DNA of 64,000 bases from positions 139,868-203,867 of the forward strand of contig NW_003155247.1 of NCBI RefSeq assembly GCF_000003605.2. The letters run 5' to 3'. Positions within the stretch are counted from its first letter, which is position 1. Each line of letters opens with the position of its first letter. The notes below the pieces were generated by a model. That model did not search any database, was not told the DNA's origin, and was given only the letters and a program-made list of their open reading frames with translations. The position numbers were made by a program, and so were the translations under genes. Shown in pieces: positions 8,668 to 34,634 of this stretch. Source of the stretch: Saccoglossus kowalevskii. Lineage: Eukaryota > Hemichordata > Enteropneusta > Harrimaniidae.

Positions 8668-8710
8668 GGGTGGCTATGTCACTCCCATTATTTGCTATAT
8701 TCGAGTCCTG
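8668..8710 (+). repeat. Weak SINE/tRNA-like fragment
   Basis: GGGTGGCTATGTCAC is followed about 30 bp later by TATTCGAGTCCTG, a box A/box B-like pair. Degenerate. Confidence 0.25.
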
Positions 8711-9266: not shown

Positions 9267-9389
9267 AAAGGGTGGTTCGTCGCGCCGCGTCCTGTTCGAT
9301 TTGGGACTCATAGCGACGTACACAACGCGTGTAAAATACATTGTTTATTTACATGAAATTCGAACGCGCGCTGCGCGACGACCACAGCG
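9267..9389 (-). mobile_element. Short inverted-repeat element (MITE), copy 1
   Basis: Ends are inverted: GGTGGTTCGTCGCGCCGCGT on the left and GCGCGACGACCACAGCG on the right. The interior, reverse-complemented, matches the element at 60838-60943, sharing a block with TGTGTACGTCGCTATGAGTC. No transposase; non-autonomous. Confidence 0.7.
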
Positions 9390-9559
9390 ATTTAATGTTA
9401 ATTGTGAAACGACCACGCTTATATTCATATGCAGAGTGTAATGTCTACAGTAGCATTTATATGCTAAGTGTAACTGCAACAGATAACAGTGACATATTTT
9501 GTAAACCGGAATTGTCTTGCACCTTGGCTACGAGATTTCGTTTTAAGTTATTGAAAAAG

Positions 9560-9712
9560 TTGGTCAAGAATCCACGACCGGGGGCGACAGAATGCGCGAC
9601 CACTTGCGCCTTCTGGGCGCAAGGGGTAGTGGGCAGACCCCCCCCCCCCCCCAATGCAAAATGTCGTGCCGCCGCCTCTGAGGTAGAGCCCATAACCACT
9701 GAGCTATTAGAT
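9560..9712 (-). repeat. tRNA-like/SINE fragment interrupted by a C15/G15 run
   Basis: On the minus strand TAGCTCAGTGGTTATGGGC (9688-9706) matches box A of a tRNA-derived SINE. A 15-base homopolymer (9638-9652) lies downstream. A clear box B is not seen at the usual spacing. Confidence 0.35.
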
Positions 9713-9719
9713 TTCCGAT

Positions 9720-12100: not shown

Positions 12101-12110
12101 AATAGGCTGC

Positions 12111-12389
12111 TCATTCATTCATTCATTCATTCATTCATTCATTCATTCATTCATTCATTCATTCATTCATTCATTCATTCATTTATTCTTTCAATCATTC
12201 ATTCATTCAATCATTCATCTATTCATCATTCATCCATTCATCCATTCTTTCATTCATTCATTCATTCATTCATTCATTCATTCATTCATTCATTCATTCA
12301 TTCATTCATTCATTCATTCATTCATTCATTCATACATTCTTTCATTCATCCATTCTTTCATTCATCCATTCATTCATCCATTCATTCAT
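12111..12389 (+). repeat. (ATTC)n microsatellite, about 280 bp
   Basis: Near-continuous ATTC repeats, degenerate in the middle (12180-12250) and toward the right end. The open frame through it is a repeat artefact. Confidence 0.97.
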
Positions 12390-12419
12390 CTGAAATAATT
12401 TGTTTGCATTCATGTCGAG

Positions 12420-14550: not shown

Positions 14551-14558
14551 TAATTATG

Positions 14559-14769
14559 TACTGTAAAATGACTAATTTTCACTTGGTTTAAATTTCGCTG
14601 ATTTACCATTTCAGGTATATTCAGTGGGTTTTAAATTCACGGTTTTGTCATTTAGATAATGTATTCTATGCTAAATTTTACATATTCACTGGGTTTTAAT
14701 TTAGCGCATTTTTCATTCAGCGAAATAAGCCAAATTAAAACCCAGTGAACAATTGATCCTTTTACAGTA
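14559..14769. mobile_element. MITE with terminal TACTGTAAAA inverted repeat
   Basis: Starts TACTGTAAAA and ends TTTTACAGTA. The motif CACTGGGTTTTAATTT near 14685 is inverted as AAATTAAAACCCAGTG near 14733, with looser copies near 14580 and 14620, so the element is internally repetitive and can fold into a hairpin. Confidence 0.7.
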
Positions 14770-14891
14770 TAGTGTCAAAATAAAAACAAATACGTGGCAG
14801 CCAACGCCAGAGGGCACTCTAAAGTTTGGTCTCCAGAGAAACACTTAGCAAGAAGAAACAAGGCAGATGCATTTCAAAAGATAACACTTAT

Positions 14892-14897
14892 TTTATT
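14892..14897 (-). terminator. Possible polyadenylation signal AATAAA
   Basis: This is the first AATAAA I see on the minus strand past the stop codon, giving a 3' UTR of about 520 nt. A variant signal nearer the stop is possible. Confidence 0.25.
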
Positions 14898-15413
14898 ACA
14901 TCCAATCACGTTGCATATTTTAATAACAGTGTACAACTATTATACTATTTACTTTTTTTCACCGTCGACACCGCGTGACATCTTATCTCATAATGTTGTC
15001 ACAAATAGAGCCTGACATGGGAAAACATTGACATCAATTTACAAATCGTTGGTAGTAAGAAATATTATAGAAGTGACGTATGTGACGTCACTTCCCCCAT
15101 CTCAGGCTCGATCTGCAATCGTATTAACGAGTTGGTATTTACATTCACGCGAAGTTCTCGTTTTTATACATGCGGAAAAGTATAGAGAAAACAAAAATTG
15201 TTCATCAAAACGATATAATATAAAGAAAATATTTTGGGGTTAGTAAATTTTAACTGACCAACGATTACCAGGGAATGCGTACAGATTCTATAATTTTGTT
15301 ACAAAGTGATACGAAAAGGCCAGCCATGATTATGGAGTTTAAAAATACGATAAAGCGAAAATCAAATTCAATAATGAGTTTTCTTCTTCGAATTTAAGAC
15401 GGCGCCCTCAGTG

Positions 15414-15559
15414 TCAGTTCATTTCTTTTGCACAATTGTCAACGCAACTATCGTGGCGCTCTTTACAACTGGCTAGGCAGGATTGTTGGTGGCCGTCCTT
15501 TTCGTTGCACGATGATGAACACTCCTTCAACGGTTCAATGCATTTGATAGTGTAACAAT
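15414..15559 (-). CDS. Terminal exon: eight-cysteine C-terminal module and stop
   Basis: Encodes an Asp (codon split with the previous exon), 47 residues starting CYTIKC, and TGA. Eight cysteines have spacing C-x4-C-x6-C-x3-C-x9-C-x3-C-x6-C-x3-C. The pattern C-x6-C-x3-C occurs twice, which suggests an internal duplication and a compact disulfide-bonded, probably helical fold. Acceptor ccttcgcag. The frame extends upstream past the acceptor to an ATG, but phase-1 splicing fits the gene better. Cysteine count and length recall secreted defence, pheromone or venom-like peptides in general; I cannot match a specific family. Confidence 0.85.
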
Positions 15560-18500
15560 CTGCGAAGGCAAGAGAGAACATGGGGTGTGAATACATGGAG
15601 CATAGTGTGTGTGCAGTTTGTTTCTACTACAAAAAATACAGTTCTCAGATAAGTATCAATAACATTTTAATAAAATCACGCCCTCTACGGCCAATTGTGC
15701 AGCTGTAACCCAGTATCCGATAAGGTCGATTTCAGAGTTTTTCATTTACTGGAAAAATTATTTTTCACTGGGATGGAATAGGGTGCAAAAGGAACTCTTT
15801 ACCCTTACTAAACGTGTTTGCTCACAAAATGCATGGCATCACACTGACCACTGAGCTGGTGTAAATTTACATAGAACATTTGAAGAACTTGCTCGTTCAT
15901 TCTGGCAGAGGATCATACTAGCACGACCTCACAGTTGAACCAACACGTGGATAAGTACATAATACGGTCATGTATTTCTCACGTGACAACAGTACACTTA
16001 CCTATGATTAGTTCTGCTTGAGTTTTCGACATGTCATATAACGCATCAGCTGTTGGGATGGAGGAAAGAAAATCGAGCAATTCAGTAACGACCCACAATT
16101 CTATTCGTTTTACACTACAATACGTAATAACGACAAGTAGATTAGCGCCATCTACGGCAGCTATAGTTTGTCCAGGACAGGTATTTGTGCGTTTAAAACA
16201 AATATTTAACAAACGTGCAACATTACAACTATAGACATTGGGTATATAAAATATGCATGAAGGGTTGCTGTATGGACTTAAAATCACTTATAATTTTAAT
16301 GGAATCTTTTTTTTTTGCGCTTCCCACTAGTACAGTGTATCACTACACATTCTTGCGTACTGAATTTTTTGTTCAACGTGTCAAATACCGAAAAGAACGT
16401 TCCATAGAATGAATGCAAAATTACGATCCGAAACGTGACACAGTGCCATAAAAAGTTACTGTGATCTAGTAAAATCAATTTACACTAAAGAGTTGGCAAA
16501 CATCGTTCTAAACAAATATTGACGTTTTAATGTTTCTACAACCTTCAATTGTAGCGTCCTCGCCGCATACCAATTATACAAATTAGAACAGTAGGCACTT
16601 TATGCGAGCTACGATAGGACAGCTTTTTGAAGGCAATATCAAATTATGTTTTTTACACAAACACAACAGTGTTCATATTTGTTTCAAAGATTTTAATCAG
16701 AACTTGTAGCGCGGCCAGTGTGAATTAAATCAATTAACAATGAAATTATACAACAATACGCAGAGAATGATGATTGCATCACGATGATAAATAGGTTAAT
16801 ACATTTCTAATATCTAGTAAAAGGAGGAAACACTTAATTTGTCGTGCGTGCTTTGTGAATAATAATGAAGAAGAAAAAAAAAAAGAACTGAACAACTAAT
16901 TGGTGGACGTATGAGAGCATTGAATTTCGTACTTTCGTATAAGCACACTTGAAACACGTGAGAGCCAAAGTCGCCGTTTTAAACGAAAAGTTCAGGGTAA
17001 CAACAAATACTCGCATACATCCTTGTGAAATGATTGAATGAGGAATACAAAACTTGTCGGTCACTATGGAAACTATGACGGATCTTCCACGTCTACCACA
17101 ATACCGGATGTGACGTCACTGGACACCGAACATATTGGTAAAAGAGAGAGACTAATCTTACTTAGATGTCATACCCGTGTCTGCTTCTTTTTTGTCCACC
17201 CAGAATACTGTGAAAAAAACGAAAACAAATACAACAGTAAGATTTACACCAATTATTCCGCACTAGTGACACATAAGTCCGCCATTTTGTTTTACAAATT
17301 CATTATCACACACGCGTTATGTTGATGTATGTTTCAATTTCTTTACGATGTAGACGACAGAATCCTGGAATAATTATCTTACCTCGTTTATCTTTATCGG
17401 CTGCATATTGAATTCAAGAAACACAAAACACGTTAAACGTTGGCACAACGTGAATGAAGAGATATGATGAAAGTTGAATACTGCCAATATGCAAATTGTA
17501 TATATTACGCCAGCGGCGTGTAGGCTCGTTCGCGACACCCACAACCACCGACACGTGCGCGTGATTCGACGAGATATTCATAACAAGAATGTTACTATGT
17601 ACAAACATATTAACGGCCAATGAGGATGAATATATCATGGCAACGAGCAAAGTAAATTCCAGTTGTAATATTAATTTTCGATTATTGGGTTTTAGATTGA
17701 AAAAAATCGTGCACAAAACAACCTATATAATAACAATATTTTATTTTGTATTGTGTGTCATGCAGAAATAATGAAAAAGTAAAGCAAATGATAGTGTAGA
17801 ACGTTATATTACAATGATAGCGCTAGACTATTTGAATGTACTTGACGTGCACCTACCTTGGTCGTCCTTCTTCTCCACCCAGAAAACTGAACGCAAGAGA
17901 AAAACAAAGATTTTACATTTTCTGTTATTATATAACGAACATTTTTTTTAATTTTAACACTAATAATATCGTAAATATTTGTTGTGTACATTGCCTGATT
18001 AAACATAACTATAGAGGGCGACTTTCTAAGTAAGTAAACAATTGCAGTAGACAGGCAGTGAAATGGGCGGGACATAAATTAGCGCTCGAAAGTGAGATTT
18101 GAAAAGAACACCAGTGTGTTCGAGTATACAAATTTGACCTGTCTCATATTACTAGAGCTAGAGTTACACTAATTTCAATACCATGCATTTCAAATCTATT
18201 CATATTTGACTTAAATTGGTAGCAAATTTTACAAAAGTTTCGGCTTAATATAGGGATAATTTCAGTTAAGGTCAAAACATGGACAATTGGGTGACTATTA
18301 ACTCCGTCAATTGTTTTCGAATCTCCCGTTATCGAATGTGTGCACACATCTAAATGTGCTACACATTATAGTGGTTATAGTGTAAAAATGCTAATGCTAA
18401 GTATGTCCGAAATGAAAAATAGGGCGTTATCATATCATCTAAAGCATAACTTATGTAATAATGTTCGCTCACCTCTTTTCTCCTGGTCTGTTGAAAAGAA

Positions 18501-21500
18501 AAATATTTAATTAGATAAAGCGGAAACAAGTAGGGGAAGATGTATTCTTTAGCGTCGAATAGTAAGCATACTGGTGGTCATAAAGTTTGAACACGCGCCA
18601 TGTGATCGAGGCTATAAGACACGCGTTATCCTCGTGAACGCCGCGTGGCGACTGCTTACAGACACAACCAGCCTAAGAGCAGACATACACAAAAACACCG
18701 GTTGACATAAATAACAATTTTGTTATAATAAATGTGACTACCATGAGCACAAAGTAAAGAGAAAATTCAGACAACTTTGAAAATATTTTAGGATTTTTGC
18801 TTGATAAACGTTGTTTCGGTTCCGTATGAATAGTCGTTTGATTAAATGCTAACATTCTCAAACTACATTTAGAAAAGTTACCAAATTGCCTGGTCACGTA
18901 AGCACAAGCACCTCAATCAAGTTTTTTTATTGAAAAACAAAAATAATTCTTGCAATAATGGTATCATTTTTTGCATATAATATCAAACGACATATAAGTG
19001 AAAGAGATTGGCATCGACCAAATATTGTAGTTAAAGACGAATCGTAATCTTGGGCAGAGGTGGCGGCACGAAATTCTAAATGGGGGTGGGGTGGCAAGAT
19101 CTGCTCACCATCCCTTACGGGGAATGCCCTTCCTTAAAAATGTTGAAATCTCGACATTCTGAAACGCTATTTCCTGCATATTGAGGGGCAAATTTTGCTG
19201 ACACAAAGGGTTTCATCTTGATCTGCTCTCCGTGCCGCCGCTACTGTGGGGGTATGTCAAGTTGAATTTATTTTAAATGTGAGCTATTCCATAATACCAT
19301 TCAATCAAACAGATAGATATCTTAATTGAATTTGAAAACAAACCTGGATTTACAAACAAGGAGCTACAAAACATTGCGATCGGTTGATTTAATGATGGAT
19401 ACAAGTACAAATAATACACAGAAACAACGACACAAATACAATAAAAATCGCACTATAATAGTCATGACGAATGTACGACATTACATTACCATATATTTAC
19501 ACATACATGCATAATAGTTGGGATTGATACATACCTTTGCCGTCTTTCTTTTCTACCCAGAACACTGTAAATATAAAAATAGGACATGCAAATAGGCGTC
19601 TCGGGTATAGGCGAAAGCATTGATGGATTGTGCATGGCGAAGGTGTTAAAGTGCATTTTTACTTCACGCACACACACTTATAACATGTAACGATGTTCGT
19701 GTTTCAGACTTACGATTGCATACCAGATAACACATTGTACTGTCAATGATATTGTTTTAATCACGTTTCGCTGTAAAAAACAGTCTGCACCTTGTTTGCA
19801 TAAATGATAAGTATCGATAAAATTTGTTCCGTATTACGAGAATTAGTATGTATTTCAGATAAAACCGGCAGTTAATACGTTCTCGAACTTTACCTCGTTT
19901 GTCATCTGCAGCTTTTAAAATAGAATAAATGAATACCGATAAGTTAATTTGCATATGTAAATAAATCAGGGACGATTTAACAGTGCTTCCGTTATCGTTG
20001 GCGAGCATGAACTCAGAATATGTCATACAAAACGCCGATGGTAACGCCTTACCAGTTCATATAAAAGGCTCATATAATATGTTTTTATTTTCTTAAAAAT
20101 CTACGCAAAATTTAGAGAAATGTTATACAACATTTTAGTGGGAACGTGTATTGTGGTTTTGGAAAGAATATTAACCAGTTTGGAGCCTATCAGTTCATGT
20201 GGCATACGTCATCATAATGTAAAACCGAACTTATTCGGTAGGTTACGATATTAACTAAATATTAACCTTTGGAGTCATCGTCCTTCTTCTCAACCCAGAA
20301 AACTGCAAGTTAAATGGAGAAAAATGTGAATACCATATATGTAAAATGTATTATTGCACAGATATATACATAATATAATAATAACGCGTCAAGTCATACT
20401 TATTCTCACCTCTTTTGTTTGGATCTGCGGCTTCATTACAAAGAAAGAAAAAAAGGGAAATACATTATGTTATTATTAATTGGATGTATTGCTAGGCGAC
20501 GCCTCATTTAACTTTATTTCACCGGAATTTAAAATCATATTTTGTTATCGCTCTAGTACGTCATTCTCTGTTGATGGCCGGAAAACTTTATACCGTATAT
20601 ATGTACAGGTGATTGGTTTTTGACAATTAAATTAATAAAAAAAAGCTAAAAAAAGAAAAAAAATCTTAAGATCTGAAAATAATGAGTGCCCGAAGGAATA
20701 TAGGTTGACATTGGCGCAGTCGCGGTGCATCATGGTTGGAAAAAGCACTTCATTCTCACACAATAAAAAAAATGTAATGCTATAATATGTATTATCGGAA
20801 ACTCTCAATGTCCTCATTATGAGTCTTTATAACAGGAAGCTGTTCACCCATCGACGATGTACCATGCAAGTAGGAGACTTTATTGCTTCGTGACTATGAT
20901 GTTTAACTTGATATCCATATTTTTTATTTTATTTTTTAACTCTAATTCTATTCACGTATATATCCAAATTGGCTAACTATTATTGTGTGGATGTTGTTGT
21001 TTTTTGAGATCAAACCTAGATATAGTTAGTTGTTTTGCTGTACATCAATGCAAATGAAGCTATTTTATTGAATAACTCCAGAGTAACAGCGATACGATTA
21101 TATCGTCAGCTTGAATAATTATGATTATGGGACCACTAAACAGCTCGTGTAATATTATGAGCGTAAGACAGTAAGAAACCTACCTGCTGCGTCGGCATTT
21201 TTCTTTTCCACCCAGAAAACTAGAATATAATGATTATGTATTCTGTTTAGAGTCTTTAATGCCATATAATTGAATATTCATTCTGAGTTGCGTTAAGATA
21301 CCTTATCAACTTAAATACTAACAATTGAAGAAATAATTTGCGATAAAACGATGAATTGTTGATGTCCTCACCTCTTTTGTCTTGTTCTACAGATTTGTAA
21401 AATGAAAAAAAATATGAATTAGTCATAGAATTTATTTATTCACGTTACTACTTTAAGAAAGACGAATCTAAAACCCATCACTTGAAGCAGCAACAGTACA

Positions 21501-24500
21501 TGTAGTACACTCAATGATATCACAACAGACAAAAGTAAATCGTATATGACAATGGTAAATCGTTCTTTAAAGTTGTGGCCAGAGACTTATAATACAAGTG
21601 GATGGGTAAGGTGGCATCTCACCTGCTGCATCAGCATTTTTCTTGTCTACCCAGAAAACTGTGGGAGAAATTAAATAAATAAAAATTGGAGATTTGACAT
21701 TACACTACATTATCATCTTTGATTTATGCCCACAGATCCTTTTCATCTACCTTTGTCAATATGTAATAACTCATCGATACTTGCCTCTTTTCTGATTATC
21801 TGAAAAAATAACAGAGAGAATAATAACTTTAATATTATATTAAATGTCTTTACATGATAGACGTGATAGACAATATTTTCCGCTCTTCTATTTGATCAAC
21901 GTGTTAAGATGATATGTTATCGTACTTTGATTAATGATTGAACAGTCAGTATGCTTTTCAAGCACTGTCGTATAATTGATATGTAATCCCCTGTGTCTAT
22001 ATAGTCAACCTGTCTCTTGGATGATGAGTGAAGTGCATTTTAGTCCTCTCACATATTTGCGTTAATGCTCAAAGCAAAGGTTATCGCTTGAGAGGTGTGA
22101 ACTCCACAGTTTATAAAGTTTGTTGTTTCAGTACTTGATCAGTGTGGGCTAGGACAGATTATACGGAGTTCTAAACTTAGAAGCTGATTGTCGTCGCTAT
22201 GATGTCGAAGATACATCGACATCCATTAGTGTGACACGTGACATGTTTCACAGCTTGTGTCCAAGTTATACTTATGAGTGAGGGTGTGTGCACGTGTAAA
22301 ACACATTGTCGTTTAGGCTATATTCAAGAAACCTGTTAGAATCGAAAAATTCGATGACTTTTTCCTTGGAAGCTTTTGCATTAGCAGCAAATTATCTAGT
22401 AATTTATTTCAGAACAGAGAAATTGACATTAATGTAAATGTAAGTAGTATATCTTACCTGCAGCTGCTGCTTTCTTGTCAACCCAGAACACTGACAATAA
22501 AAATAACAAGCCATGAATGAATAAATAAATTAAAAAAATGTTTTGTTGACATTTTTGCAATTGGTGCGTAGTTGAATACAACTGGTTATATAGAAATAAT
22601 AGTATTATAATCTACGCTTTAAAATCATATATCTACATAACATATATAAAATGAAATGTACATTGACGTGGTTTGGGGACGAATTGTAGCTTAATTTAGT
22701 TTAAAAACAATTTGTACACTAATGCAGTTTGAAAAGAAATGTACATTAATTTACTTTGAACTTTACCCTCAATACGAACAAATATTTTAAGATCTGTATT
22801 ACCGTCGCGATCGGCTATATTGGAGTTATGATTTGAAAACTTATATCAATGAACCGTTCTAGTTTCATATTTAGTCGCAAAGCATACAATGACCCGGAAA
22901 ATGACTTTTATTTTACGATCGGAGCGGTGGCGATTCCACGAAATTAGCCTGAGAAAGACATATGCTATTCCTTTTCGTAATTTGACAATTCGAGGTACTT
23001 GACAACAATTCTAACAGTGCATGGTCTAAGTGCTAACAATGTTTCTCCTAATCATAGTTTCAATCTGCTGATACTGTCACCTGAAGCTGAGAATTGTGCT
23101 TCACCCAAGTGACGTGACGACCTAGAATATATTTGTTGACCCGCATTTAAAGGTCCTCTACAAATTTAAATGAGAAAGTAGTATACAATAATACAATTGT
23201 ATTGACATTACAGTGACATACACTCGAATAACCATTAGAATAGCAAGCTAGGTGGTTGGCATTTCATGCCTCGTTTAGGGGGCACGGTGGCCTGCCACAA
23301 TAATTAGGATAGTCATGAGAATTCAGAATGGTTAATCACAAGAGACGAATAGCTGTTCAAATCTTATCGTCTCGCACGTTACAAAGAACCTGCAATTTTA
23401 CTGAGGAGACGCGGACTCCCAAATCGGCGATGCACGTTGACAAGATGAAGAGACTCGTGGTGCACACTCTTAGTTACCCTATAGCGAATTCTCACTATAC
23501 ACTTCTATATAATTAATGGTCTAATTATTTTACATACACACACATATCAAAATAAACGTACCTCTTTTGTCTATATCATCTTGGGATGCTATCAAAGGCA
23601 AAACGAGAATACAAATGTCATTTGAAAGCAAGATTACTGTTAAATTCGACGTTTTTCGAGACGTGTAGGTACAGTTCAGGGAATCATTAACGGTGTTAAC
23701 TAACTAAGATGCCTCATTAACGAGTCCACTGTGAGCCGTTCAACGAAATACTGTAATTTGCGATCGGCTGAACGGACACCGGAGATACAGCTGTAATGAT
23801 GTTTGCATTCATTGTAAGGATACGATGTGTTGCACTCACCGTCTTTCTTGTCAACCCAGAACACTGTAGAGAAAGTAGAAAATAAATGTTATAAAAATTT
23901 ACTAACGAGTGAATTTGAGAAATAAAACCAACGAATAACTAATTTGTGGGGTAATGATTAGTGTGTCAGCTTATCAGACTGCGGGTGGGTTCGACTCGCA
24001 CCGTCGGCTGCATACTCAGCAGTGACAACAAATACATTCTGCCTGCCCGCTTGCTAGGGTCGCAGTTTTGTCGGAGGAGCGTAAAGCTGCCCCGAGTGCT
24101 GTTCGCATTCACAGTGCACGCACGAGATCCAGTTGTTCATGCCCCAAAGAGTAACGCATTTTTCTCAAAACATGTGTATGTTTGAGTTGTATTGCGTTGT
24201 CCCTCATTTCTAAGTCTGGCCCCGGGCTAGTTGACAGTATGACTCGGTAATATGCATTTTCAACCCAATAAATACAGACTAAATAATTAGGATTAATTAT
24301 GACATTCGTCGCGTTACATATTGGTGTTATTAATTACCACGATCACACGCTGGTAGGTGTAAGTGCGCATGTGTGGTACGAAGTCCTGGTACCTTTCACA
24401 TATCGATGTTCCATTTCTTCTCATTAGTGCCCGCAGTTGATAGCGAGCTTATACGTCAGCAAGAAACAAGGACTGATCGCACGTTTTATTCACTGTCATG

Positions 24501-27500
24501 TTTGCCTTAATCGATGGTACGAGAGCGTTTAGATATATAACAAATTAATAAAATTGTGTACATTAAAATCAGTAGAAATTATGGTTAGCAATTAACATTA
24601 TTGTAGAAAACAATAGGTAAAAAAATGATAATATTTCCATATTTCCTACTTTTACGAAAATCGCTGCTAACCAGATTATAATATACTAATGAAAATATGC
24701 TAATTATATGACGTCACACACACATATAATTTACCTCTCTTGTCATCTTCTTTTTCTGAAAAAACAACATAATAACTTATAGTTAATATATTATTTATTC
24801 ATATATCTATCTAAATTATTAAAAAAAATAATAATTGATCTTCTAAGATACGTAGCAAATTCCAAAGGTCAGTAACTACCCGGAAATGCTCCGTAATGAT
24901 ATTACCAATAAACTAAAAGCACTTACCAAGGTCTGCGTTTTTCTTATCTACCCAAAATACTGTTCAAAAAATTTAAAAAAAATAGTCTATGAGTGAAACG
25001 GAATCGAGATAACGCATAGACGGTAATTATGTGTTTGTATTCTGTATCCACACTAACTAGTATTCAAAAAGGAAGTCTATTTGTCATTTTTCGGATTAAC
25101 GAAATATGCACAATGACACAGTAGATTCGGAAATGAAAGGACATTACGACTAAATGATAATAAATTCTTTCAGTGACAAGATTACATTTTTTTTCAAATG
25201 GAAAAACGACATCGATTTTCCTTGAGTAAATACAATTAGTTGAGCCCGATTATCCAGTGGAATAACAAGTGTGTTTAGCGACTAATGCTAGGAAAACGAA
25301 CCGTCGTCTTCCCCCATCCCCCACGGGTTAACACACAACAAGGAGTGCAATATTCATTGAGCTGACCTCTGATAACGGGCTGTCTCAGTTGATTTATATA
25401 TATTATACCGTTGATTGCAATGAATTCTCAAGTGGCGCGTTTAATATATTACTTAATAAAATGTACGCCACGAGAAAACGTCAAAGACACATGGGTACAA
25501 TGTACCTATGTAATTGCGCGTGTACTTGACATGTGCATATCCCATATTGTACATCACTGTAATATTGTTCAATATATCAAGTGTTAGTTCACATGTGTGA
25601 CAATCGTATTTGTCAATTGCAGAACGTTTAGTGGTTTCTACCCGAATACAGTAACAATGTCGCGCTATTAGTTCACTAGTTGGTTTCCTAACACATTTAA
25701 TCGCAATGAAATGTACACATAACATGTGTTGCGCACTTTTGCGTGTAGTAAGAAGATATTCATATGACGATAGGGTGTTCTCATGTGGGTGGACCGATTT
25801 ATGCGACAGCTATTTATATTTCCCCATACATTAGATTTGATTTATAAATACGTCCAAATACGACAATGTTCTTGGTGGACTGGGCCGTATAAAAGTAAGA
25901 GGCAATCCCACAACAAAAACATTTTACTAGCTAACAACTTTACTTAATCAATAAATCGGATGATATACATACCCCGTTTTGATGTATCTCGTTTGTCTAC
26001 TGTTGGCGCTGCATTGACTGTGAAAAAAATAAATAAAAATAAATTATATGTGAATGGCCTGGGTAAGAATTCCTGGAGTTTAACAGCAGTACTTGTACAA
26101 CTATACAATGCAACAGATGTTCAAACAACTCACAAGCGAGTTACATTTATAATTCGTGTTAGCATTCAGTTCGGTTAAGGGTTACATCGCTCCCATGTTC
26201 GTTCAGCCAACTCAAAAGGTACTGATTACACAAAGCAGATTACTGTCCTATATACATAAAGGCCGCCTGAGTCTACAGACGTTACCTATAGTAGAAAACA
26301 TTCGTCTACGATTACTTCTCTGGCATAACGCGAAATTTACGAAAAAGAGATACAATCACAAATCAGAAAACAAATTTTTATATTTTATGTACGGTATATG
26401 TGAATATTTCAATATTTCAATAAAATCTATTGATGGCTAAGTAATCGACAATGACGTAACTAGATTATTCCCAGCATTCTAACCTTTTTCATACACAATA
26501 GATCTTCGTGTACAGCTAAAAAAACAAACATTGATATGCTTTCATGTACGTGAGCTTTTTATCTAAAACTGGTTTGGCATGTGTATGGTAAACCCCCTTA
26601 GGTCGTTATTTGAATGGTAACAAGTTCTCAAGTTAAAGAAGGTTTAATTTGTTGCCAATTATCCACGGCAAGAATGATGTATTCCTATCAGATTACCAAT
26701 TTAACTTTTTCGATTTTACCAAAAGGCGTCCAATTATATGTTCGAGAGGGTGGGTGTAGAATAAAATGTCTTGTGTTTCTCTAAACGACAACAGAAAAGA
26801 CATTTAAATGACCCCAAATGATTTTTTACAGAGTTTTGATGATTTAAAGCCGATCCACCGGTATTTGTCTTCGGATCTAATGTACTATAAAGTCAGGGAC
26901 TCATATCCCTGGTGTAATTATACACAGAAACATAGGATAGCTTTTCATGATCAGTCAAGACTCATTTGTCAAATGATATACCCAATAGACGTTACTTTAT
27001 TACTGAAACATAATAGTAATATTTGATTTGTATCACGGCGTGGGTAATAATGCGTAAGGTATCGCCATTGTATTTTTCCTATCACATATACGTTTATACG
27101 GCATATGTAACAGACACGTATCGCTGCCTTCTCTTTTTATCGTTTTAATATCGCTCAAAATAAATGCTTCTGTCTACGTTATTCCCGCTTTAGGCGCAGC
27201 GCTTAAGCCGTTCGCATTATGTAACACGGACCATGATTAAAGTCGGCGACTCAATTATTTTGTAATTAATTGCAATTTATACTCAGACAACTCAGAAAAC
27301 CTACTGCGTTATAGTCTATGCCAACTTCTGGGCACAACACGTGTAGCAGAAACAGAAATGGCGAATACAAACAAACGGGAAGTTGCGATTTAATTACGTC
27401 GCGATCACGTGCTGGTAAATGCTATTATATTAATGTAATTCAAAAGCAGTTTTAATGAGAACAAAATGAAATGGAATATTATTATGAATCCTATCCGTGT

Positions 27501-30500
27501 GCTATCACCGTCTTGGTAATTGATTTATGTTTTTAATACCAAAGCACACAATTTAGATTTATCCGTCTATCAATTATAGACCAAACATAGCGGCACAAGG
27601 AAGCAATTTCCAAGCGATTATGCACGAAAGCAATAAATAAAAACGCGAGCACAAGAGATGAGTTATTGCCGCTGGCTTTAATAAGAACTGAACTTACCCG
27701 TGTCGTCATACGCGCCTATATTAGACTATCAGTATACAGTGATTTATAGCACGCAATTGGATTTCAATGTAATACCAGGCTTTCCTAATTTGTTTTGCAG
27801 ATGCATATTTGCATGCATAATGGGATGAAACAGCGGAGGATGGTGGCTCGCCTGTGGGATGAGGCAACTTCATTGGATTAACCGTAAGTGCTTATTAAGT
27901 CTCAAAACATGTGCGTGTTACTGTAAATATCGCATTAAAACTTAGATACAACACAGCGATGTACGCAACCTTTATTATCAAGAAACTTAAGCCCGAGGGA
28001 GTTCGGAAAGATATCACTTAAAACGCAAAATTAGCATTCAAATTATAATTATGTTTTGCTTTTTTGCAGGCTTGTCTCAATAGATCTCAACTGCAAATAG
28101 CCGCTGAGATCTCGTACTGAACGAGAGAGCTTCGAGACTTGTGTTTGCCCTTCAAATAGTAATCTATGTAGACTGTATGTAACTGTAGACTGGATGACAG
28201 GAGAGATCAAGTCACGTGGACCACTCGTTCTCAACGAGATCTCGGCGGCCATCTACGTTCAATTTCCATCAATCGGATTGAATAGTAGTTAACAACTTAT
28301 AGTTAAAATAAAAAATGTAACATGATACCAGAATAGGCAAGTCTTAGTTTTGTGCAAGGAACTATTAGCAAAAACCAATTGTTTTTTTTAAAATGGCGGA
28401 ATGATACGTTCAGAGTGATCAGTTCGTTTGGTCAACTTTTCCAGTAGTGCGAATACAAGTGTAGTTTAATAGCCTTCATTTTGGAGACTTTCAACACCAT
28501 GATGATGTATTTATTAGCTGATTTAAAATGTTGTATATTTGTGCGCACCTTTACTTTTTTGCACTATGTGTGAAATATCCCAGTTTGTCAAGTGTTTATA
28601 TTGTTGCCTGTTGGGAACTTTATTGAAGTATTAAACATAAAACTGTATTTTTACTTTTGGAAAACGCGACGTGTACTATTGGGTGATGTCAAACATCAAT
28701 TTCAAAAGAACAAGTTATCTGCCCTGCCCTTCAATTGTAACGACGTATGCGATAAAGTCACGCGTGTATTTTGTCGAACGTCGCGCGATATACGCAAGTT
28801 TTGTTTAAGGTCACGGAACGTCACCTGATAAGCACGAATTCTACCGAAAATCTCACTATAAGAGCGAGTTTTATTTAAGGTCATGGAACATCACCTGATA
28901 GGCACGAATTCTACCGAACATCTGGCTATAGGAGCGAGTTTTGTTGACCATCACAGTAGAGACTAATTTGATAGCGAGGCGATGAATATTACAACTAATA
29001 ATTTGAAAATGACTTTCAAAATTTAAAATATCCTGCCAAATGTTATAAATTAAAATTTGATTCTTGCTTATAACATAAGGCTATGTATACTGTGAATGGT
29101 GTCTCCCACACAATATATTAAATTACCCGATAAAGTAATGTAATTCGGACATGAATGAAAGGGGAGTTTTAGATGATTTCCCAAACACAATTGAGTCGCG
29201 CAAGTAAAAAAAACCCAAGCGCGAGGTTAGTGTTAATCCGGTGATTTGATTTGCATAATTGGCTTGAATAATTAACAAGGTTTAAATGACAACTATATTC
29301 TAAATTTTAAATACACATATTCTCATTTCCCGAAGAAACGTTCCAAATTGATAATTAGAATCCATGTGATTCATCGGTCGGCAACGTAACTGATTGGTCA
29401 TAAAGGCAATTATTACGATTTTAATTATTTCACTGACTACTTCCAAGTGGCGGGAAATTGACAACCCACCCATGGGTAATTCTCGCGTCTAATTATGATT
29501 AATTTCGTTTCTGTGTATGTTTCGCAATTTAAAGTTCGTGCAATCTCTCGTTCTGTCATACCCAAAGCCCCCCCCTAATCCTCTAGATGCATTCACTCTG
29601 TAAATTGTTATGTAAAGCGACTATTTCATTTTTTTTTCATACACTACAAGTTCAATTAATATATGTTACCTATTAGCTGATCAGCAAACCCAACCTGCAA
29701 ACAGTAGGACGGCGATTTCTTTACCTTACTGACGCAAGTCATAGAATAAACATAACTATTAGACAACTAAACGGGGGGGGGTATATTTTTTCCATTCAAT
29801 TTAAAACGGAATTGATATGACTTAATTGAATGAATGCAAAGCTTTCCCTTAATACAGATAGTAAGATCGTCACCAGTCTGTGAGCATACAAGATACGCCA
29901 GATAGCATACAACACAATGGTTTCCTTGGAGACTATCGTAATGCCTACCCAATTGACGATATTAAGGCTGATTACTCGATACTTTGACATTCACGGTTGC
30001 GTTTCATGTCACATTTCTCTCGTGTTAGCCGTCGTAACCAATAATTAGTGGGTTTTAGTATCACATGAAATGTTTGCAGTCTCGTTCGCAGCTAGTTCTG
30101 TAATAATCATTAATATTACACAAAATATCTATTTATCATACTAGGTGAAACAAACAATGGGATTTTTTTATTGTGCAGTGTGCGCTCGTTGACTAGTTGC
30201 TAACGTACTTACGTACATCTCAAGCTGACATTTCAGAAAAAATAAACTATGAATTATTAGACAACAAAATTGCCCTGGAATCTAAAATCGTGTATATATG
30301 TGAAAACGGAAACAACTCATATAACTCATGAAGCATTCAGAATGTGTGCTAAGATTTATCTAAATGCGCTCCTAAGCTGACGTTAATAAATTTTTCATAA
30401 GAACAATCAAATCTTGTATTAAATGCTTCACTGATTTCAAAGTATCGAAGACTTTATTTGACGGCTCATATTCAGATAGCAGTAATTGCTTAACGCGTCC

Positions 30501-33500
30501 GAAGAATGAAACCATGGTATATTCATGTTTTAGATTAGACTTAATCCGTACCTTGTCGAAATTGTTAAGCCGACTTAGATCTTAGTTACTGAAATAGATG
30601 AAGCCGTAGTATTGTTTTCTCTTAAAGTTCACTCAAGTTTATCATAACTATCCTATTTGAATTGAACAATCAATGCCTTCTCCGGAGATTTTGAAAGCAC
30701 ATCCGATATTACTATCAGCTCTATACATTGTCCCGGGGAACATGTCTTGACATCTTTGATAATTTACGTGAACGTGAAAAAGGGAATACGGTGCTCCAGC
30801 AAGCGCTGTCAGAACGTGTTGACTTAATGTCTACCACCGTTACGTCAAATTTTCTTATCGAATCAATAAATCAGCCAAATGTAGCTCTCGTCGTAGTCTA
30901 ATGAGAAGTCATATCTATGGAGATCGATTAATTTGTGAACATACAGGTTAACCCCCTGCATGATACAACGGACTGACCTCGTACCTTACCTCCCAAGACT
31001 CTCAGTCTTCCGCATCGACTTATACTAGTATACGTAAGTAATATCAGTCACCCTAACCGGATTATTCACGTGCACGGCGAGGAGCTGTTAACTCAATTCA
31101 ATCTAAACGAGTCGTATCAATAATGCATGCGTGTCAATAGTTTGGTCGTAAATGTCTGCATGGCAGAGTATGCTCTACGATGGATATGAAAACTTACTGT
31201 ATTTTCCTGTGGGTATTTTTGTACCGTACGCTTTGAACAATGACCCAAAGTTGTCATAAATAGTATAACTGCAGTCCTATAATGATAATATTTCGCTTAG
31301 GAAGGTAATAATAAAATAATAGTAGTAAGACTAATCTGTGTAGATTTCTCCCTGTCTCGTATTTACTTCTACATGAAAATCACAACCCTCAACGCATGGA
31401 AAATGATTTTTTAAAAAACCTCATTCAAATATTTCTACGGCAAATCTGTGAGCGTAAGGATGGGATGCCAGNNNNNNNNNNNNNNNNNNNNNNNNNNNNN
31501 NNNNNNNNNNNNNNNNNNNNNNNNNNNNNNNNNNNNNNNNNNNNNNNNNNNNNNNNNNNNNNNNNNNNNNNNNNNNNNNNNNNNNNNNNNNNNNNNNNNN
31601 NNNNNNNNNNNNNNNNNNNNNNNNNNNNNNNNNNNNNNNNNNNNNNNNNNNNNNNNNNNNNNNNNNNNNNNNNNNNNNNNNNNNNNNNNNNNNNNNNNNN
31701 NNNNNNNNNNNNNNNNNNNNNNNNNNNNNNNNNNNNNNNNNNNNNNNNNNNNNNNNNNNNNNNNNNNNNNNNNNNNNNNNNNNNNNNNNNNNNNNNNNNN
31801 NNNNNNNNNNNNNNNNNNNNNNNNNNNNNNNNNNNNNNNNNNNNNNNNNNNNNNNNNNNNNNNNNNNNNNNNNNNNNNNNNNNNNNNNNNNNNNNNNNNN
31901 NNNNNNNNNNNNNNNNNNNNNNNNNNNNNNNNNNNNNNNNNNNNNNNNNNNNNNNNNNNNNNNNNNNNNNNNNNNNNNNNNNNNNNNNNNNNNNNNNNNN
32001 NNNNNNNNNNTCGCACAAGAATATAACGTTCAATCGGGAATGACATTTTATAATTTGATAGCTCATATCCGTAAATTTCAAATGGAGGATTAAGGGGACC
32101 TTGCAACATCGCTGTGGGTATCGCGTAAATGGTTTCATAATAGGGTGACCAATATGGATATTATACCCCACATTGATCATTGTAGTAGCAAATTTCGTAT
32201 TTTCGTCTCTCATAATTGTAATTGTCCTTGTAATATTAGCGCTATGTGTTACTTATCATGGCGTACTTATCCTAAGACGACAGGCGCGGATTTCACCCGC
32301 TGTGAACGATGGTAGTTTAGGGTTCCAGTTTTTTAAATCGCTCTGTGATATAATTAAAGACGAGCATGTCATATGAGTGAAACTCCTCCCCGAATGAGTT
32401 TCTCTTACAAGTACGATGAAACACAAATGGTCATAATGGTGGTTACATTGCACTAACCCCCAGATGATCAGCCTTGCTGACTAATTTCGTATGTGTTTGC
32501 CTCCAAATAACAAAAACGCTTCCTTAATCCAACTAGATATATGCTCTAAGGAGCAAATCATATTACGTGAGTTTGTTGTGTTCATTAATAAGGGAGAATC
32601 TACAACCTCGCTCCAGGACCTGTAGAATTGCGATATTGAATGGTTCAGCGTAAGCAGGGGGTAGTATTGAAGTTTGCGTAAATCATTAACCATCCTTACA
32701 TAGATCAATCAGGCGAAGTTGAACCCGGGATCTGCACGTTTCTTTTTCTGTTAGTTGGATTATTCAGACGCTTTGCGTATTTACGTTAACAAATTTGACA
32801 GAGTTACTCAAGGAGATTGGCAATTTCCGCCAAGAAAATCAATTTTGTCTTAACCCATAGCTATCAAACACCAGCCTGGGGGCAATTCCTTGTTCATCAT
32901 CTAACGCTAACCAGTCGTGTTGCATCAAATACTCTTTCAAGCGCTTCACAATTGCTGTCGCTATTTCTTATTGCGAGGCATGTTACACATGATGATGATG
33001 ATAGCGTTAGTTTGTTTAGATCGTGTTTTTAGTGATGCAGCGATTGTCGTATCCCTATTGTATCTGATTATGTGTATACTGTACAAACCTTACAGCACAT
33101 TTTAAACCTTTAAATCAGTGGTCTCGATGTACAACTTTCATGAATAATTTGCATCGTGAAATCACGTCGTATTCAATTCTAATAAAGTGCTTTTGGCACT
33201 TTTGCTTGAATTTGCTTCATCAAATTGCGAGAGAGAAACGGTGGCGCCAGTAAGATCCGAAATGACCTGACCAAGAGCCACATCAACGGACGCACAATGT
33301 TAAAGAACGCCAACTAAGTGATTTTTTTACTGACGATGGTATAGTGTTGATGACAGTAACAACATAGGCCTTTTTTAATACAGTACATGATTCAAGCCAG
33401 AGAACTTGTGATTGATTAAAATTGTTTGTTTTTCCAAACTTCATATGTCAATATTAACCCCCGGGATTCCACACAAAGGTTTAATGTATATATCCGATGA

Positions 33501-34634
33501 ATTGAAGTTGCGGACAAATTAAATCCAATGCCTGTTTGCAGAACAATAACCGTCGAGCGCTCTTGGGACCTGCTATGACAACTTTACGTACGGCGTAATT
33601 TGTTATTCTGGTTTGTGAGCCAATTGTTTTAAAATAAAAACACAAGAGAACCCCATTAATCATTTTTATTGCATTTCGAATTGGTTCATCATCACAGATC
33701 GAAATTAGCTTAGAAACCTGGTATGAAGCTAATATAAATGTTAGAGTTTTGAAGAAGATTGAGACGAATCGTGTCTCAGCGAAAACCCCACAGGACCGCA
33801 CTGCAGATTTCAAGAAACGTGTTGTTTTAGAAATGATTAGAATGGACAATAAAACATATTTTCAATTCCATATGTGTTGATTTATATTACTGCAGTCAAC
33901 GTGCTTTCTCGCGAGTTACGTGACTTGTGGGCATTTACCAATTCACCAATGATAAGTTGGAAAATAACCAGGCTATAGACAATCTCAATGTGTCGTAATT
34001 GCGTGGGAGAAGAATAGGGATTCTTCTCATTTTAAGCATAAATACATTGTTTTGTCAAAAACATTTTATATTGAAGAAATTTAAATATGTGTTAGTCTCG
34101 AGAAATAAGTGTGGTTTAGGTGTTGGCATATGTTCGGGGAAATCGCAGAAAGCAGTGAAATGTAAACCACGCCTTGCTTCTCTGAATCCTCAACCCAATT
34201 CTGAAGGCATTGGAAGGAAATTACGTTAGCGGTTGTAATATTTGTGTTTTGAGAAATTGAATTTGTTGACATTGGCAAAACAATCATAGCAGCGTAGATT
34301 GAACGTTCAGAGAATGAATTCGCTGTCTCAATTTCGTTACTAAGTCTTGAAATGGTTGTAGCCACGAAACAGTTCATTATCATCCAACAGTATCACAATC
34401 TCAATTCTAGCGTATGTATCACATTCTTCTTATTATTACCTTTGCCACAACATTCCTTTTTTTGCCAATAACTCGGGCGCATCATGATGAAGAACAAATT
34501 CCATCTGCGTGGAATAACAAACACCCGTTAACAACACCATTGAAGTTTCAACCGCATTTTGATAATAAGGAATATAACTTACCTGCAATACAACTAAGAA
34601 CTAGGAGGCACGCACACAACCCAACGCTTGCCAT
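15414..34634 (-). CDS. Micro-exon gene: secreted precursor with VFWV(D/E)KK...KR repeats and Cys-rich C-terminus (spliced span)
   Basis: This entry spans the whole coding region; exons are listed separately. Seen in the sequence: a signal-peptide start exon, a dibasic pro-region exon, nine A-type exons (VFWV plus D or E plus KK) alternating with eight B-type exons (acidic, ending KR), a 48-bp exon and a cysteine-rich terminal exon. All firm exons have AG acceptors; donors are GT except one GC. All internal exons are phase 1/phase 1 and end in G, so each following exon starts with a Val, Ala, Asp or Glu codon completed by that G. Firm exons sum to 732 nt, 243 residues. Third-position differences among A exons that keep V-F-W-V indicate selection on protein. 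Inferred role: secretory-pathway precursor cut at KR, giving VFWV-starting peptides and a cysteine-rich domain. Other possibilities are an uncut repeat protein, a schistosome-MEG-like variable secreted protein, or a venom-like precursor. Family not recognised. Confidence 0.88.
16002..16049 (-). CDS. Linker exon, 48 bp
   Basis: Encodes ADALYDMSKTQAELII, then G. An excellent pyrimidine tract (ttttctttcctccatcccaacag) precedes it and donor G|gtaagt follows. No dibasic site; it joins the last VFWV unit to the cysteine-rich module. A weaker internal acceptor would leave only the last 12 bp, also in frame. Confidence 0.8.
17175..17207 (-). CDS. Type-A micro-exon 9 (last), 33 bp
   Basis: Encodes VFWVDKKEADT. 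It reverts to Asp after four Glu units and has no B partner: I found no KR exon between here and 16049. Acceptor ttttttcacag, donor G|gtatga. Confidence 0.9.
17383..17400 (-). CDS. Type-B micro-exon 8, 18 bp
   Basis: Encodes ADKDKR. Acceptor aatatgcag, donor G|gtaaga. Confidence 0.85.
17857..17886 (-). CDS. Type-A micro-exon 8, 30 bp
   Basis: Encodes VFWVEKKDDQ. Acceptor cttgcgttcag, donor G|gtaggt. Confidence 0.9.
18473..18487 (-). CDS. Type-B micro-exon 7, 15 bp
   Basis: Encodes DQEKR. Acceptor cttttcaacag, donor G|gtgagc. At 1,047 bp from its A partner it has the longest A-to-B intron of the set. Confidence 0.83.
19055..19246. mobile_element. hAT-like MITE within an intron
   Basis: Left end CAGAGGTGGCGGCACG and right end CGTGCCGCCGCTACTG are inverted copies beginning with CAG, as in many hAT elements. 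A clean 8-bp target duplication is not visible. It lies between type-A exon 7 and type-B exon 7. Confidence 0.65.
19535..19564 (-). CDS. Type-A micro-exon 7, 30 bp
   Basis: Encodes VFWVEKKDGK. Acceptor atatttacag, donor G|gtatgt. The intron after it carries a hAT-like element (19055-19246). Confidence 0.9.
19894..19911 (-). CDS. Type-B micro-exon 6, 18 bp
   Basis: Encodes AADDKR. Acceptor attttaaaag, donor G|gtaaag. Confidence 0.83.
20267..20302 (-). CDS. Type-A micro-exon 6, 36 bp
   Basis: Encodes VFWVEKKDDDSK, with an acidic tail. Acceptor aacttgcag, donor G|gttaat, a weaker GT donor than its siblings and a possible site of regulated splicing. Confidence 0.88.
20410..20430 (-). CDS. Type-B micro-exon 5, 21 bp
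   Basis: Encodes AADPNKR. A strong pyrimidine tract precedes acceptor gtaatgaag; donor G|gtgaga. Confidence 0.85.
21184..21219 (-). CDS. Type-A micro-exon 5, 36 bp
   Basis: Encodes VFWVEKKNADAA. It is the first A unit with Glu in the fifth position; the four upstream A units all have Asp. Acceptor atattctag, donor G|gtaggt. Confidence 0.9.
21372..21386 (-). CDS. Type-B micro-exon 4, 15 bp
   Basis: Encodes EQDKR. Acceptor caaatctgtag with an upstream T-rich tract, donor G|gtgagg. Confidence 0.83.
21623..21658 (-). CDS. Type-A micro-exon 4, 36 bp
   Basis: Encodes VFWVDKKNADAA. It is nearly the same as the next A exon (21184-21219) apart from D versus E and some silent changes, suggesting a fairly recent duplication. 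Acceptor ctcccacag, donor G|gtgaga. Confidence 0.9.
21785..21799 (-). CDS. Type-B micro-exon 3, 15 bp, with GC donor
   Basis: Encodes DNQKR. Acceptor attttttcag. The donor is GAG|gcaagt, a GC-AG intron with otherwise full consensus, the only non-GT donor among the firm exons. Confidence 0.78.
22458..22490 (-). CDS. Type-A micro-exon 3, 33 bp
   Basis: Encodes VFWVDKKAAAA, with an all-Ala tail from four GCN codons. Acceptor attgtcag, donor G|gtaaga. Confidence 0.9.
23562..23588 (-). CDS. Type-B micro-exon 2, 27 bp
   Basis: Encodes ASQDDIDKR, the longest B segment, partnering the shortest A exon so that the combined repeat length stays similar. Acceptor tttgatag, donor G|gtacgt. Confidence 0.85.
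23840..23863 (-). CDS. Type-A micro-exon 2, 24 bp
   Basis: Encodes VFWVDKKD, the shortest A unit with no extended variable tail. Acceptor ctctacag, donor G|gtgagt. Confidence 0.9.
23946..24005 (+). repeat. tRNA-like head of a SINE within an intron
   Basis: GGGTAATGATTAGTGTGTCAG resembles box A; GGGTTCGACTCGCACC matches box B well about 35 bp later. The body probably continues to about 24260, after which the sequence is again AT-rich. Confidence 0.5.
24735..24755 (-). CDS. Type-B micro-exon 1, 21 bp
   Basis: Encodes EKEDDKR, the most charged of the B segments. Acceptor gttttttcag, donor G|gtaaat. It lies 171 bp downstream of its A partner. Confidence 0.85.
24927..24959 (-). CDS. Type-A micro-exon 1, 33 bp
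   Basis: Encodes VFWVDKKNADL. Acceptor ttgaacag, donor G|gtaagt. It is the only A exon using TTT for Phe; the others use TTC. Confidence 0.9.
25973..26017 (-). CDS. Pro-region exon, 45 bp, two dibasic sites
   Basis: It encodes VNAAPTVDKRDTSKR with the first Val completed by G from the exon before. It has two KR sites; the second sits immediately before the first VFWV unit, as in every later repeat. Acceptor ttttttcacag, donor G|gtatgt. It could have formed from two fused B-type units (…VDKR and DTSKR). Confidence 0.8.
26495..26515 (-). CDS. Candidate micro-exon, 21 bp (A-V-H-E-D-L-L)
   Basis: A strong acceptor (eight T then ag) precedes 21 bp, open in phase 1, followed by donor gtatga. The exon would end in T, not G, making the next residue Phe instead of Val. 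A longer reading to the donor gttaga at 26482-26483 gives 32 bp, which breaks frame. It may be a real pro-region exon or a decayed one. Confidence 0.3.
27698..27715 (-). CDS. Candidate micro-exon, 18 bp (G-A-Y-D-D-T)
   Basis: Acceptor ctaatatag and donor G|gtaagt bound an 18-bp open segment in the required phase 1/phase 1, ending in G like its siblings. It would encode an acidic pro-region segment between the signal peptide and the first KR sites. It lacks the A or B signatures, so support is only splice sites, phase and position. Confidence 0.4.
28097..28252. mobile_element. Inverted-repeat element with GAGATCTCG ends
   Basis: 28097-28127 and 28223-28252 are imperfect inverted copies of about 30 bp (CTCGTTCTCAACGAGATCTC and its partner). 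A single similar end occurs at 56813-56835. No target duplication is seen. The 67-codon minus-strand frame across it is probably a by-product. Confidence 0.5.
28791..28943 (+). repeat. 70-bp tandem repeat, about 2.2 copies
   Basis: TCACCTGATA recurs at 28821 and 28891, and AGCACGAATT/GGCACGAATT at the same 70-bp offset; GAGCGAGTTTT flanks each unit. Confidence 0.85.
31472..32010. other. Assembly gap, 539 N
   Basis: Run of N inside the long 5' intron region of the micro-exon gene. It could hide further micro-exons. Open frames crossing it are artefacts. Confidence 0.99.
34583..34634 (-). CDS. Signal-peptide exon (first coding exon)
   Basis: It encodes MASVGLCACLLVLSCIA and then the first base (G) of the next codon. 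This is a typical secretion signal: short N-region, hydrophobic core of about 12 residues, small residues at the expected cleavage point. The donor reads G|gtaagt, phase 1, matching all downstream exons. The ATG has A at -3 and G at +4. Nine bases upstream of the ATG is a good acceptor (pyrimidine-rich, then catgcag, AG at 34644-34645), so this could be exon 2 after a 5' UTR exon. Assignment to the gene rests on strand, phase and the need for a start; the next firm exon is 8.6 kb away. Confidence 0.75.

What the first reader, a model, noticed from the sequence alone, without database searches (positions are those of the whole stretch)
15414..34634. Undescribed micro-exon gene with alternating VFWV and KR micro-exons
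Seventeen exons of 15-36 bp alternate strictly A-B-A-B between a signal-peptide exon and a Cys-rich terminal exon. Each is too short for ordinary gene finders and none is visible as a normal open frame, so the gene is probably missing from automatic annotation. Silent changes within the conserved V-F-W-V codons show selection on protein. The layout resembles schistosome micro-exon genes, but the repeat peptide is not one I recognise.
Basis: partly seen in the sequence, partly recalled or inferred. Interest (0 to 1): 0.93.

Follow-up and report, generated by a model that had tools for sequence, protein, structure and literature searches.

The report
Acorn worm micro-exon peptide precursor gene
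This is a real but unstudied acorn-worm gene that strings together nine near-identical copies of a short secreted peptide, each copy pieced together from small exons, and it is probably a hormone or neuropeptide gene rather than a parasite-type micro-exon gene.

Summary
On the minus strand of 15,414-34,634 lie 21 coding exons, 17 of them 15-36 bp, alternating A (VFWV) and B (KR) between a signal-peptide-like exon and a Cys-rich terminal exon. Spliced, they give letter for letter a protein already in NCBI: Saccoglossus kowalevskii (hemichordate) "uncharacterized protein LOC102807013 isoform X2". So the gene is annotated, only unnamed. The searches found relatives only in two other acorn worms, Glandiceps and Ptychodera. 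All 21 VFWV copies in the three proteins follow a KR, then carry E, D or Q, then a second basic pair (20 KK, 1 RK). Among the nine copies here the core has pS 0.76 against pN 0.03. This is the anatomy of a multi-copy secreted peptide precursor, most likely a non-amidated neuropeptide or hormone; VFWVE/VFWVD as final product is inferred. The schistosome likeness is in exon layout only. Expression, cleavage and receptor are untested. No paper on it turned up in the open-access main texts searched.

The parts
34583..34634 (-). Exon SP: start codon and hydrophobic signal-peptide-like N terminus (MASVGLCACLLVLSCIA + 1 base)
   Evidence: identical to P0001; mean Kyte-Doolittle 2.4 over residues 4-19; no signal-peptide predictor was available
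25973..26017 (-). Exon B0, 45 bp: VNAAPTVDKRDTSKR, leader segment with two KR sites
24927..24959 (-). Exon A1, 33 bp: VFWVDKKNADL
24735..24755 (-). Exon B1, 21 bp: EKEDDKR
23840..23863 (-). Exon A2, 24 bp: VFWVDKKD
23562..23588 (-). Exon B2, 27 bp: ASQDDIDKR
22458..22490 (-). Exon A3, 33 bp: VFWVDKKAAAA
21785..21799 (-). Exon B3, 15 bp: DNQKR; followed by a GC donor
21623..21658 (-). Exon A4, 36 bp: VFWVDKKNADAA
21372..21386 (-). Exon B4, 15 bp: EQDKR
21184..21219 (-). Exon A5, 36 bp: VFWVEKKNADAA
20410..20424 (-). Exon B5, 15 bp as annotated (DPNKR); a second in-frame acceptor 6 nt upstream would make it 20410-20430
   Evidence: the 20424 form reproduces P0001 exactly; one search used the 20430 form, which differs from P0001 by two Ala
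20267..20302 (-). Exon A6, 36 bp: VFWVEKKDDDSK
19894..19911 (-). Exon B6, 18 bp: AADDKR
19535..19564 (-). Exon A7, 30 bp: VFWVEKKDGK
18473..18487 (-). Exon B7, 15 bp: DQEKR
17857..17886 (-). Exon A8, 30 bp: VFWVEKKDDQ
17383..17400 (-). Exon B8, 18 bp: ADKDKR
17175..17207 (-). Exon A9, 33 bp: VFWVDKKEADT; last copy, not closed by KR
16002..16049 (-). Exon B9, 48 bp: ADALYDMSKTQAELII, linker into the Cys domain; no KR
15414..15559 (-). Exon C, 146 bp: eight-Cys C-terminal domain and stop
   Evidence: modelled as a helical hairpin, mean pLDDT 81; one match, itself, in the genome

Best explanation
The gene (LOC102807013 in S. kowalevskii) encodes a secreted multi-copy peptide precursor, most likely a neuropeptide or peptide hormone of acorn worms. 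Shown from sequence: a hydrophobic N terminus, nine VFWV[D/E]KK repeats each preceded by KR, variable spacers that leave the KR-bounded segments neutral to acidic, and a C-terminal eight-Cys domain. Inferred: the chain enters the secretory pathway, a proprotein convertase cuts after KR (and probably after the second basic pair KK/RK), a carboxypeptidase trims the basic residues, and up to nine copies of VFWVD/VFWVE are released to act on a receptor (or, if KK is not cut, eight peptides of 13-16 residues beginning VFWV, the ninth copy staying on the Cys domain). The Cys hairpin would help folding or sorting, or be a second product. Each closed repeat is built from one A exon (peptide) and one B exon (spacer end plus KR). 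Because every internal exon is a multiple of three in phase 1-1, exons can be gained, lost or skipped without breaking the frame.
For: Exact identity of the spliced product with NCBI's LOC102807013 isoform X2, 241 of 241 residues. Orthologues in two other enteropneust families with 7 and 5 copies. In the three proteins 21 of 21 VFWV copies follow KR; then E 14, D 6, Q 1; then KK 20, RK 1, so the second basic pair survives a K-to-R change. 18 of 21 copies are closed by KR (segments). Core pN/pS 0.04 among the nine copies, while 40-nt intron flanks average 28% (downstream) and 38% (upstream) identity against 85% for the first 20 exon bases, so recent copying does not explain the identity. KR codons also vary silently. 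PC2 mRNA is present in S. kowalevskii juveniles, including collar/dorsal and ventral cords (PMC10508912, passages).
Against: No glycine for amidation follows any copy (0 of 21). The acidic residue after the second basic pair in 15 of 21 copies (14 D, 1 E) may not favour convertase cleavage (recalled). No expression, peptidomic or receptor data were available. The last copy in each of the 3 proteins is not closed by KR. Some A-exon pairs align by BLAST up to about 25 nt into the intron (e.g. 23886-23828 with 21683-21624, 80% over 61), so not every flank is at chance. The passages shown of the S. kowalevskii nervous-system paper (12 of 23 places) do not mention it. No signal-peptide predictor was run.
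Confidence: 0.6

Rival explanations
1. A secreted multi-copy precursor whose peptides are not neural: a reproductive (egg-jelly or sperm-activating type), epithelial, mucus or defence peptide, cut by the same convertases.
For: The sequence anatomy fits any peptide made by convertase cutting; no tissue data exist here. Egg-jelly peptide precursors in sea urchins are also multi-copy (recalled).
Against: The eight KR-bounded VFWV segments have net charge 0 to -3, unlike typical cationic antimicrobial peptides (recalled). The strict identity of a four-residue core in 21 of 21 copies (copies were found by that core) suits a receptor ligand more than a membrane-active peptide.
Confidence: 0.25
2. 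A structural or variant-generating secreted protein in the manner of schistosome micro-exon genes: the protein is not cut, and micro-exon skipping creates variants.
For: Symmetric micro-exons, signal-peptide-like exon first, two possible acceptors at B5; NCBI isoform labels X2 and X3 and clusters of 4 and 3 members in the relatives imply alternative models. By the wide 3-81 bp range of PMC10526429 (abstract in listing) 20 of 21 exons fit (lengths).
Against: 60% of coding bases lie in exons of 36 bp or less against ~80% quoted in PMC5825161 (passages). The repeats are strongly conserved instead of diversified, and KR before each of 21 copies is unexplained.
Confidence: 0.1
3. The exon chain is a mis-assembly or a prediction artefact without a transcript.
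For: No transcript data could be examined here.
Against: 0 matches in 200 simulations; splice dinucleotides at all 20 introns; an independent annotation with the same protein; orthologous proteins from two other species.
Confidence: 0.02

Closest known systems
Multi-copy neuropeptide precursors bounded by dibasic sites (for example the starfish S2/SALMFamide precursor; PMC4772807, passages)
   Same: Signal peptide, repeated short peptides bounded by dibasic sites.
   Different: No amidation glycine; no sequence similarity found to a named family; peptide and cleavage site lie on separate alternating micro-exons; Cys-rich C-terminal domain.
Proenkephalin-type precursors (recalled)
   Same: Non-amidated pentapeptides flanked by basic pairs would be the product if KK is cut.
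   Different: VFWVE/VFWVD has no YGGF motif; the Cys domain is C-terminal (comparison from memory).
Luqin precursors (PMC4062910, passages)
   Same: A Cys-containing C-terminal domain follows the peptide.
   Different: Luqin is an RWamide (PMC10508912, passages); here eight Cys and many copies of a non-amidated peptide.
Schistosome micro-exon genes, MEGs (PMC5825161 passages; PMC10526429 passages, and abstract)
   Same: Short symmetric exons between long introns, signal peptide at the N terminus.
   Different: Other phylum; my protein searches returned no schistosome protein; smaller share of exons up to 36 bp (60%); conserved repeats with KR sites, two micro-exons per repeat.
Alpha-hairpinin / vicilin-buried peptides (fold of the C-terminal domain only; family name and consensus recalled)

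Membership tests
Neuropeptide / peptide-hormone precursor | N-terminal signal peptide | tested here: inconclusive
   Residues 4-19 strongly hydrophobic (mean 2.4); no predictor available
Neuropeptide / peptide-hormone precursor | Repeated conserved peptides preceded by dibasic convertase sites | tested here: met
   21 of 21 copies in three species follow KR; 18 of 21 are also closed by KR
Neuropeptide / peptide-hormone precursor | C-terminal amidation glycine (common, not required) | tested here: not met
   0 of 21 copies have G before the basic pair or right after it
Neuropeptide / peptide-hormone precursor | Expression in neurons or endocrine cells, mature peptide detected, cognate receptor | not testable with these tools
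   No RNA, peptide or receptor data at hand
Named neuropeptide family (any) | Sequence similarity to a known precursor | tested here: inconclusive
   Protein searches return only the three acorn-worm proteins (in 26 only 7,999 candidates were scored). The C-terminal-region search had one candidate, the query itself, and did not even recover the two known orthologues, so it tells nothing. No Pfam family reaches its cut-off
Schistosome MEG | About 80% of coding region in symmetric exons of 6-36 bp (PMC5825161) | tested here: not met
   17 exons, 435 of 726 bp = 60%; 73% if the 45- and 48-bp exons are added
Schistosome MEG | Short exons of 3-81 bp between introns of up to 5 kbp (PMC10526429 abstract) | tested here: inconclusive
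   20 of 21 exons fit (580 of 726 bp, summed by hand); exon C has 146 bp and the first intron 8,565 bp
Schistosome MEG | Symmetric exons | tested here: met
   19 of 19 internal exons are multiples of 3
Schistosome MEG | Protein variants by alternative splicing | tested here: inconclusive
   A possible 6-nt acceptor choice was seen in the sequence; NCBI isoform labels suggest variants
Alpha-hairpinin fold (C-terminal domain) | CX3C-Xn-CX3C helical hairpin | tested here: inconclusive
   Spacing fits; model pLDDT 81, but structural matches are weak and tied with unrelated chains

The most novel reading that the evidence does not exclude
A peptide signalling family private to hemichordates (or to a lineage not yet sampled), releasing non-amidated VFWVE/VFWVD pentapeptides to a still unknown receptor. 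Its gene keeps ligand and cleavage site on separate alternating micro-exons, so that splicing can set the number of ligand copies made per precursor, and the introns between copies keep them from being homogenised.
Probability: 0.25. Interest if true: 0.75.

Novelty: new variant of a known kind. Interest (0 to 1): 0.52.

Why it matters
Hemichordates are a key outgroup for chordate nervous systems. An unstudied, strongly conserved peptide precursor there gives a concrete ligand (VFWV[E/D]) to test on orphan receptors. Its exon layout is a clean case of symmetric micro-exons outside parasitic flatworms, and it can show whether splicing sets the copy number of a peptide. It also shows that a gene can be annotated and still be functionally invisible because it bears no recognised domain.

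Tried and rejected
Chance or repeat artefact: rejected. Paralogues in the same genome: the A-exon pattern matches nowhere else and the Cys domain gives one match, itself; the tool warns that its counts are lower bounds. Known domain: no Pfam or NCBIfam family above its cut-off. Solved structures by sequence: best E 0.87 and 0.35, nothing convincing. Full-length fold: poor (mean pLDDT 41.6); only the Cys domain is modelled. Relatives outside acorn worms: the profile search (999 candidates scored) gave none; the C-terminal-region search with the Glandiceps protein missed even the two known orthologues and is uninformative. The tool needs shared 5-residue words, so this is weak evidence of absence.

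Copy-by-copy orthology between species: spacers support it only in part. Fractions of order shuffles reaching the observed score were 0.005, 0.014 and 0.039 when all copies were shuffled, and 0.04, 0.08 and 0.20 with the last copy kept in place (pairs Sk-Gt, Sk-Pf, Gt-Pf). Clear pairs are Sk1/Pf1 and Gt2/Pf2.

Comparator (do other S. kowalevskii neuropeptide genes split repeats into micro-exons?): a WFMRFG codon pattern found nothing, and two looser patterns did not complete. The question is open. Antimicrobial reading from the synthetic peptide KSL-W (KKVVFWVKFK, search listing): considered a coincidence; the predicted products here are neutral to acidic.
Full report
What was checked. The finding claims a minus-strand gene in 15,414-34,634 of alternating micro-exons. 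I located every exon by exact string and checked reading phase and splice ends. The chain has 21 coding exons: SP (52 bp), B0 (45), A1-A9 (24-36), B1-B8 (15-27), B9 (48) and C (146). All 19 internal exons are multiples of three and fit phase 1-1; 19 introns are GT-AG and one, after B3, is GC-AG. Some of them do lie in listed stop-to-stop frames, but nothing there marks them as a gene.

Not chance. The A-core pattern with its acceptor is found 9 times on the minus strand and 0 on the plus strand; 200 first-order Markov sequences of the same length gave 0. In the whole assembly (572,110,611 bases, 4,830 contigs) the A pattern has 9 matches, all of them these exons, with 3 matches for the backwards control (counts are lower bounds by the tool's own note).

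Organism and annotation. A search of 5.8 billion proteins with the spliced product returned three proteins with E up to 1 among 1,409 candidates: Saccoglossus kowalevskii LOC102807013 isoform X2, Glandiceps talaboti LOC144436064 isoform X3, and an uncharacterized Ptychodera flava protein. With the downstream acceptor of B5 (20424) my splice chain equals the S. kowalevskii record at 241 of 241 residues; with the upstream one it has two Ala more. The gene is thus annotated, as an uncharacterized protein, and the claim that it is probably missing is not supported. The three species belong to three enteropneust families, Harrimaniidae, Spengelidae and Ptychoderidae.

What the protein looks like. 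After a hydrophobic start come APTVDKR, DTSKR, nine VFWV[D/E]KK repeats, and an eight-Cys end. In the three species there are 9, 7 and 5 copies, 21 in all. Each of the 21 is preceded by KR. The residue after VFWV is E in 14, D in 6 and Q in 1. Then comes a basic pair: KK in 20 and RK in 1. Eighteen of the 21 are closed by a further KR; in each of the three proteins the last copy instead runs into the Cys domain. Short KR-bounded units without VFWV also occur. DASKR (Glandiceps) and ETAKR (Ptychodera) match the leader unit DTSKR of the window by position, but EIQNDKR and AGNDKR (Glandiceps) and EDLDKR (Ptychodera) are extra. So strict A-B alternation is not universal, or those records reflect A-exon skipping.

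Selection. Over all 36 pairs of the nine copies in the window the seven core codons give pS 0.76 and pN 0.03 (uncorrected proportions); each of the two V columns uses three codons and the KR codons vary too. The first 20 exon bases are 85% alike on average, while the 40-nt flanks average 38% upstream and 28% downstream. A few pairs align by BLAST up to about 25 nt into the intron, for example 23886-23828 with 21683-21624 at 80% over 61. On balance the copies look old and held alike by selection on the peptide rather than by recent duplication. The order of spacer types is partly shared between species: shuffle fractions are 0.005, 0.014 and 0.039 with all copies shuffled, and 0.04, 0.08 and 0.20 with the last copy kept in place, which is suggestive and no more.

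Mechanism. The parsimonious reading is a prohormone: signal peptide removed, KR sites cut by a proprotein convertase, basic residues trimmed. The persistence of a second basic pair, including one K-to-R swap, suggests that it too is cut, giving VFWVE/VFWVD; this step is inferred, and the acidic residue that follows it in 15 of 21 copies may speak against it. If it is not cut, the products are peptides of 13-16 residues (one search lists the segments, with the longer B5 form giving 17 for one of them). PC2 mRNA is reported in S. kowalevskii juveniles, including the cords (PMC10508912, passages, 12 of 23 places shown). I place 0.6 on neuropeptide or hormone, 0.25 on a non-neural secreted peptide, 0.1 on an uncut variant protein.

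Relation to micro-exon genes. PMC5825161 (passages) describes MEGs as having ~80% of coding sequence in symmetric exons of 6-36 bp, with variation by alternative splicing. Here the share is 60%. The abstract of PMC10526429 (listing) gives a wider range, exons of 3-81 bp between introns of up to 5 kbp; 20 of 21 exons here would fit that, but not exon C or the 8,565-bp first intron. The organism is a hemichordate, no schistosome protein came up in the protein searches, and the repeats are conserved. It works like a MEG in exon arithmetic and is not shown to be one.

Literature. A full-text search for VFWV in any position returned 40 papers (39 listed), none on this gene judging by titles and abstract beginnings; many are on the synthetic peptide KSL-W. 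A search for two locus names and four longer strings returned one unrelated paper. Listings on hemichordate neuropeptides (25 of 40; 25 of 66; 15 of 78), on micro-exons and neuropeptides (12 of 713; 15 of 405), on repeated small exons (2 of 2) and on Saccoglossus peptides (10 of 145) showed no title or abstract beginning that describes it. Passages of PMC4772807 (12 of 56 places) and PMC4062910 (12 of 12 places) did not either. Supplementary files and most subscription papers were not searched; a 2013 survey that the nervous-system paper cites for S. kowalevskii neuropeptides is not held. An earlier listing there is possible.

Verdict. A real, annotated but, as far as I could search, functionally undescribed acorn-worm peptide-precursor gene with an unusual two-micro-exons-per-repeat layout. 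Solid as anatomy, inferred as function.

Noticed in passing
window 20410-20430: Two possible in-frame acceptors 6 nt apart at exon B5; the annotated isoform uses the downstream one, the other would add two Ala.
   Followed up: yes
window 21784 (intron after B3): One intron has a GC-AG boundary while the other 19 are GT-AG.
   Followed up: no
window 12111-12389 and 50406-50641: Long simple repeats (TCAT)n, 70 copies, and (AAGA)n, 59 copies.
   Followed up: no
window 28797-28942: A 70-bp unit repeated 2.1 times (89% matches) inside the 8.6-kb first intron, which also holds an assembly gap at 31472-32010.
   Followed up: no
window 1-15000 and 35000-64000: No other gene recognised: no Rfam match at gathering score and no tRNA; 10 of 205 listed open frames, picked by eye, had no Pfam match. 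Short exons of other genes could be missed.
   Followed up: partly
P0002 residues 49-55 and 130-135; P0003 residues 56-61: Extra KR-bounded units without VFWV in the relatives (EIQNDKR, AGNDKR, EDLDKR), pointing to B-type units gained, A-type units lost, or A exons skipped.
   Followed up: partly
P0002 residues 1-11: The Glandiceps record has 11 residues ahead of the Met that aligns with the start in the other two; perhaps a start codon set too far upstream.
   Followed up: no
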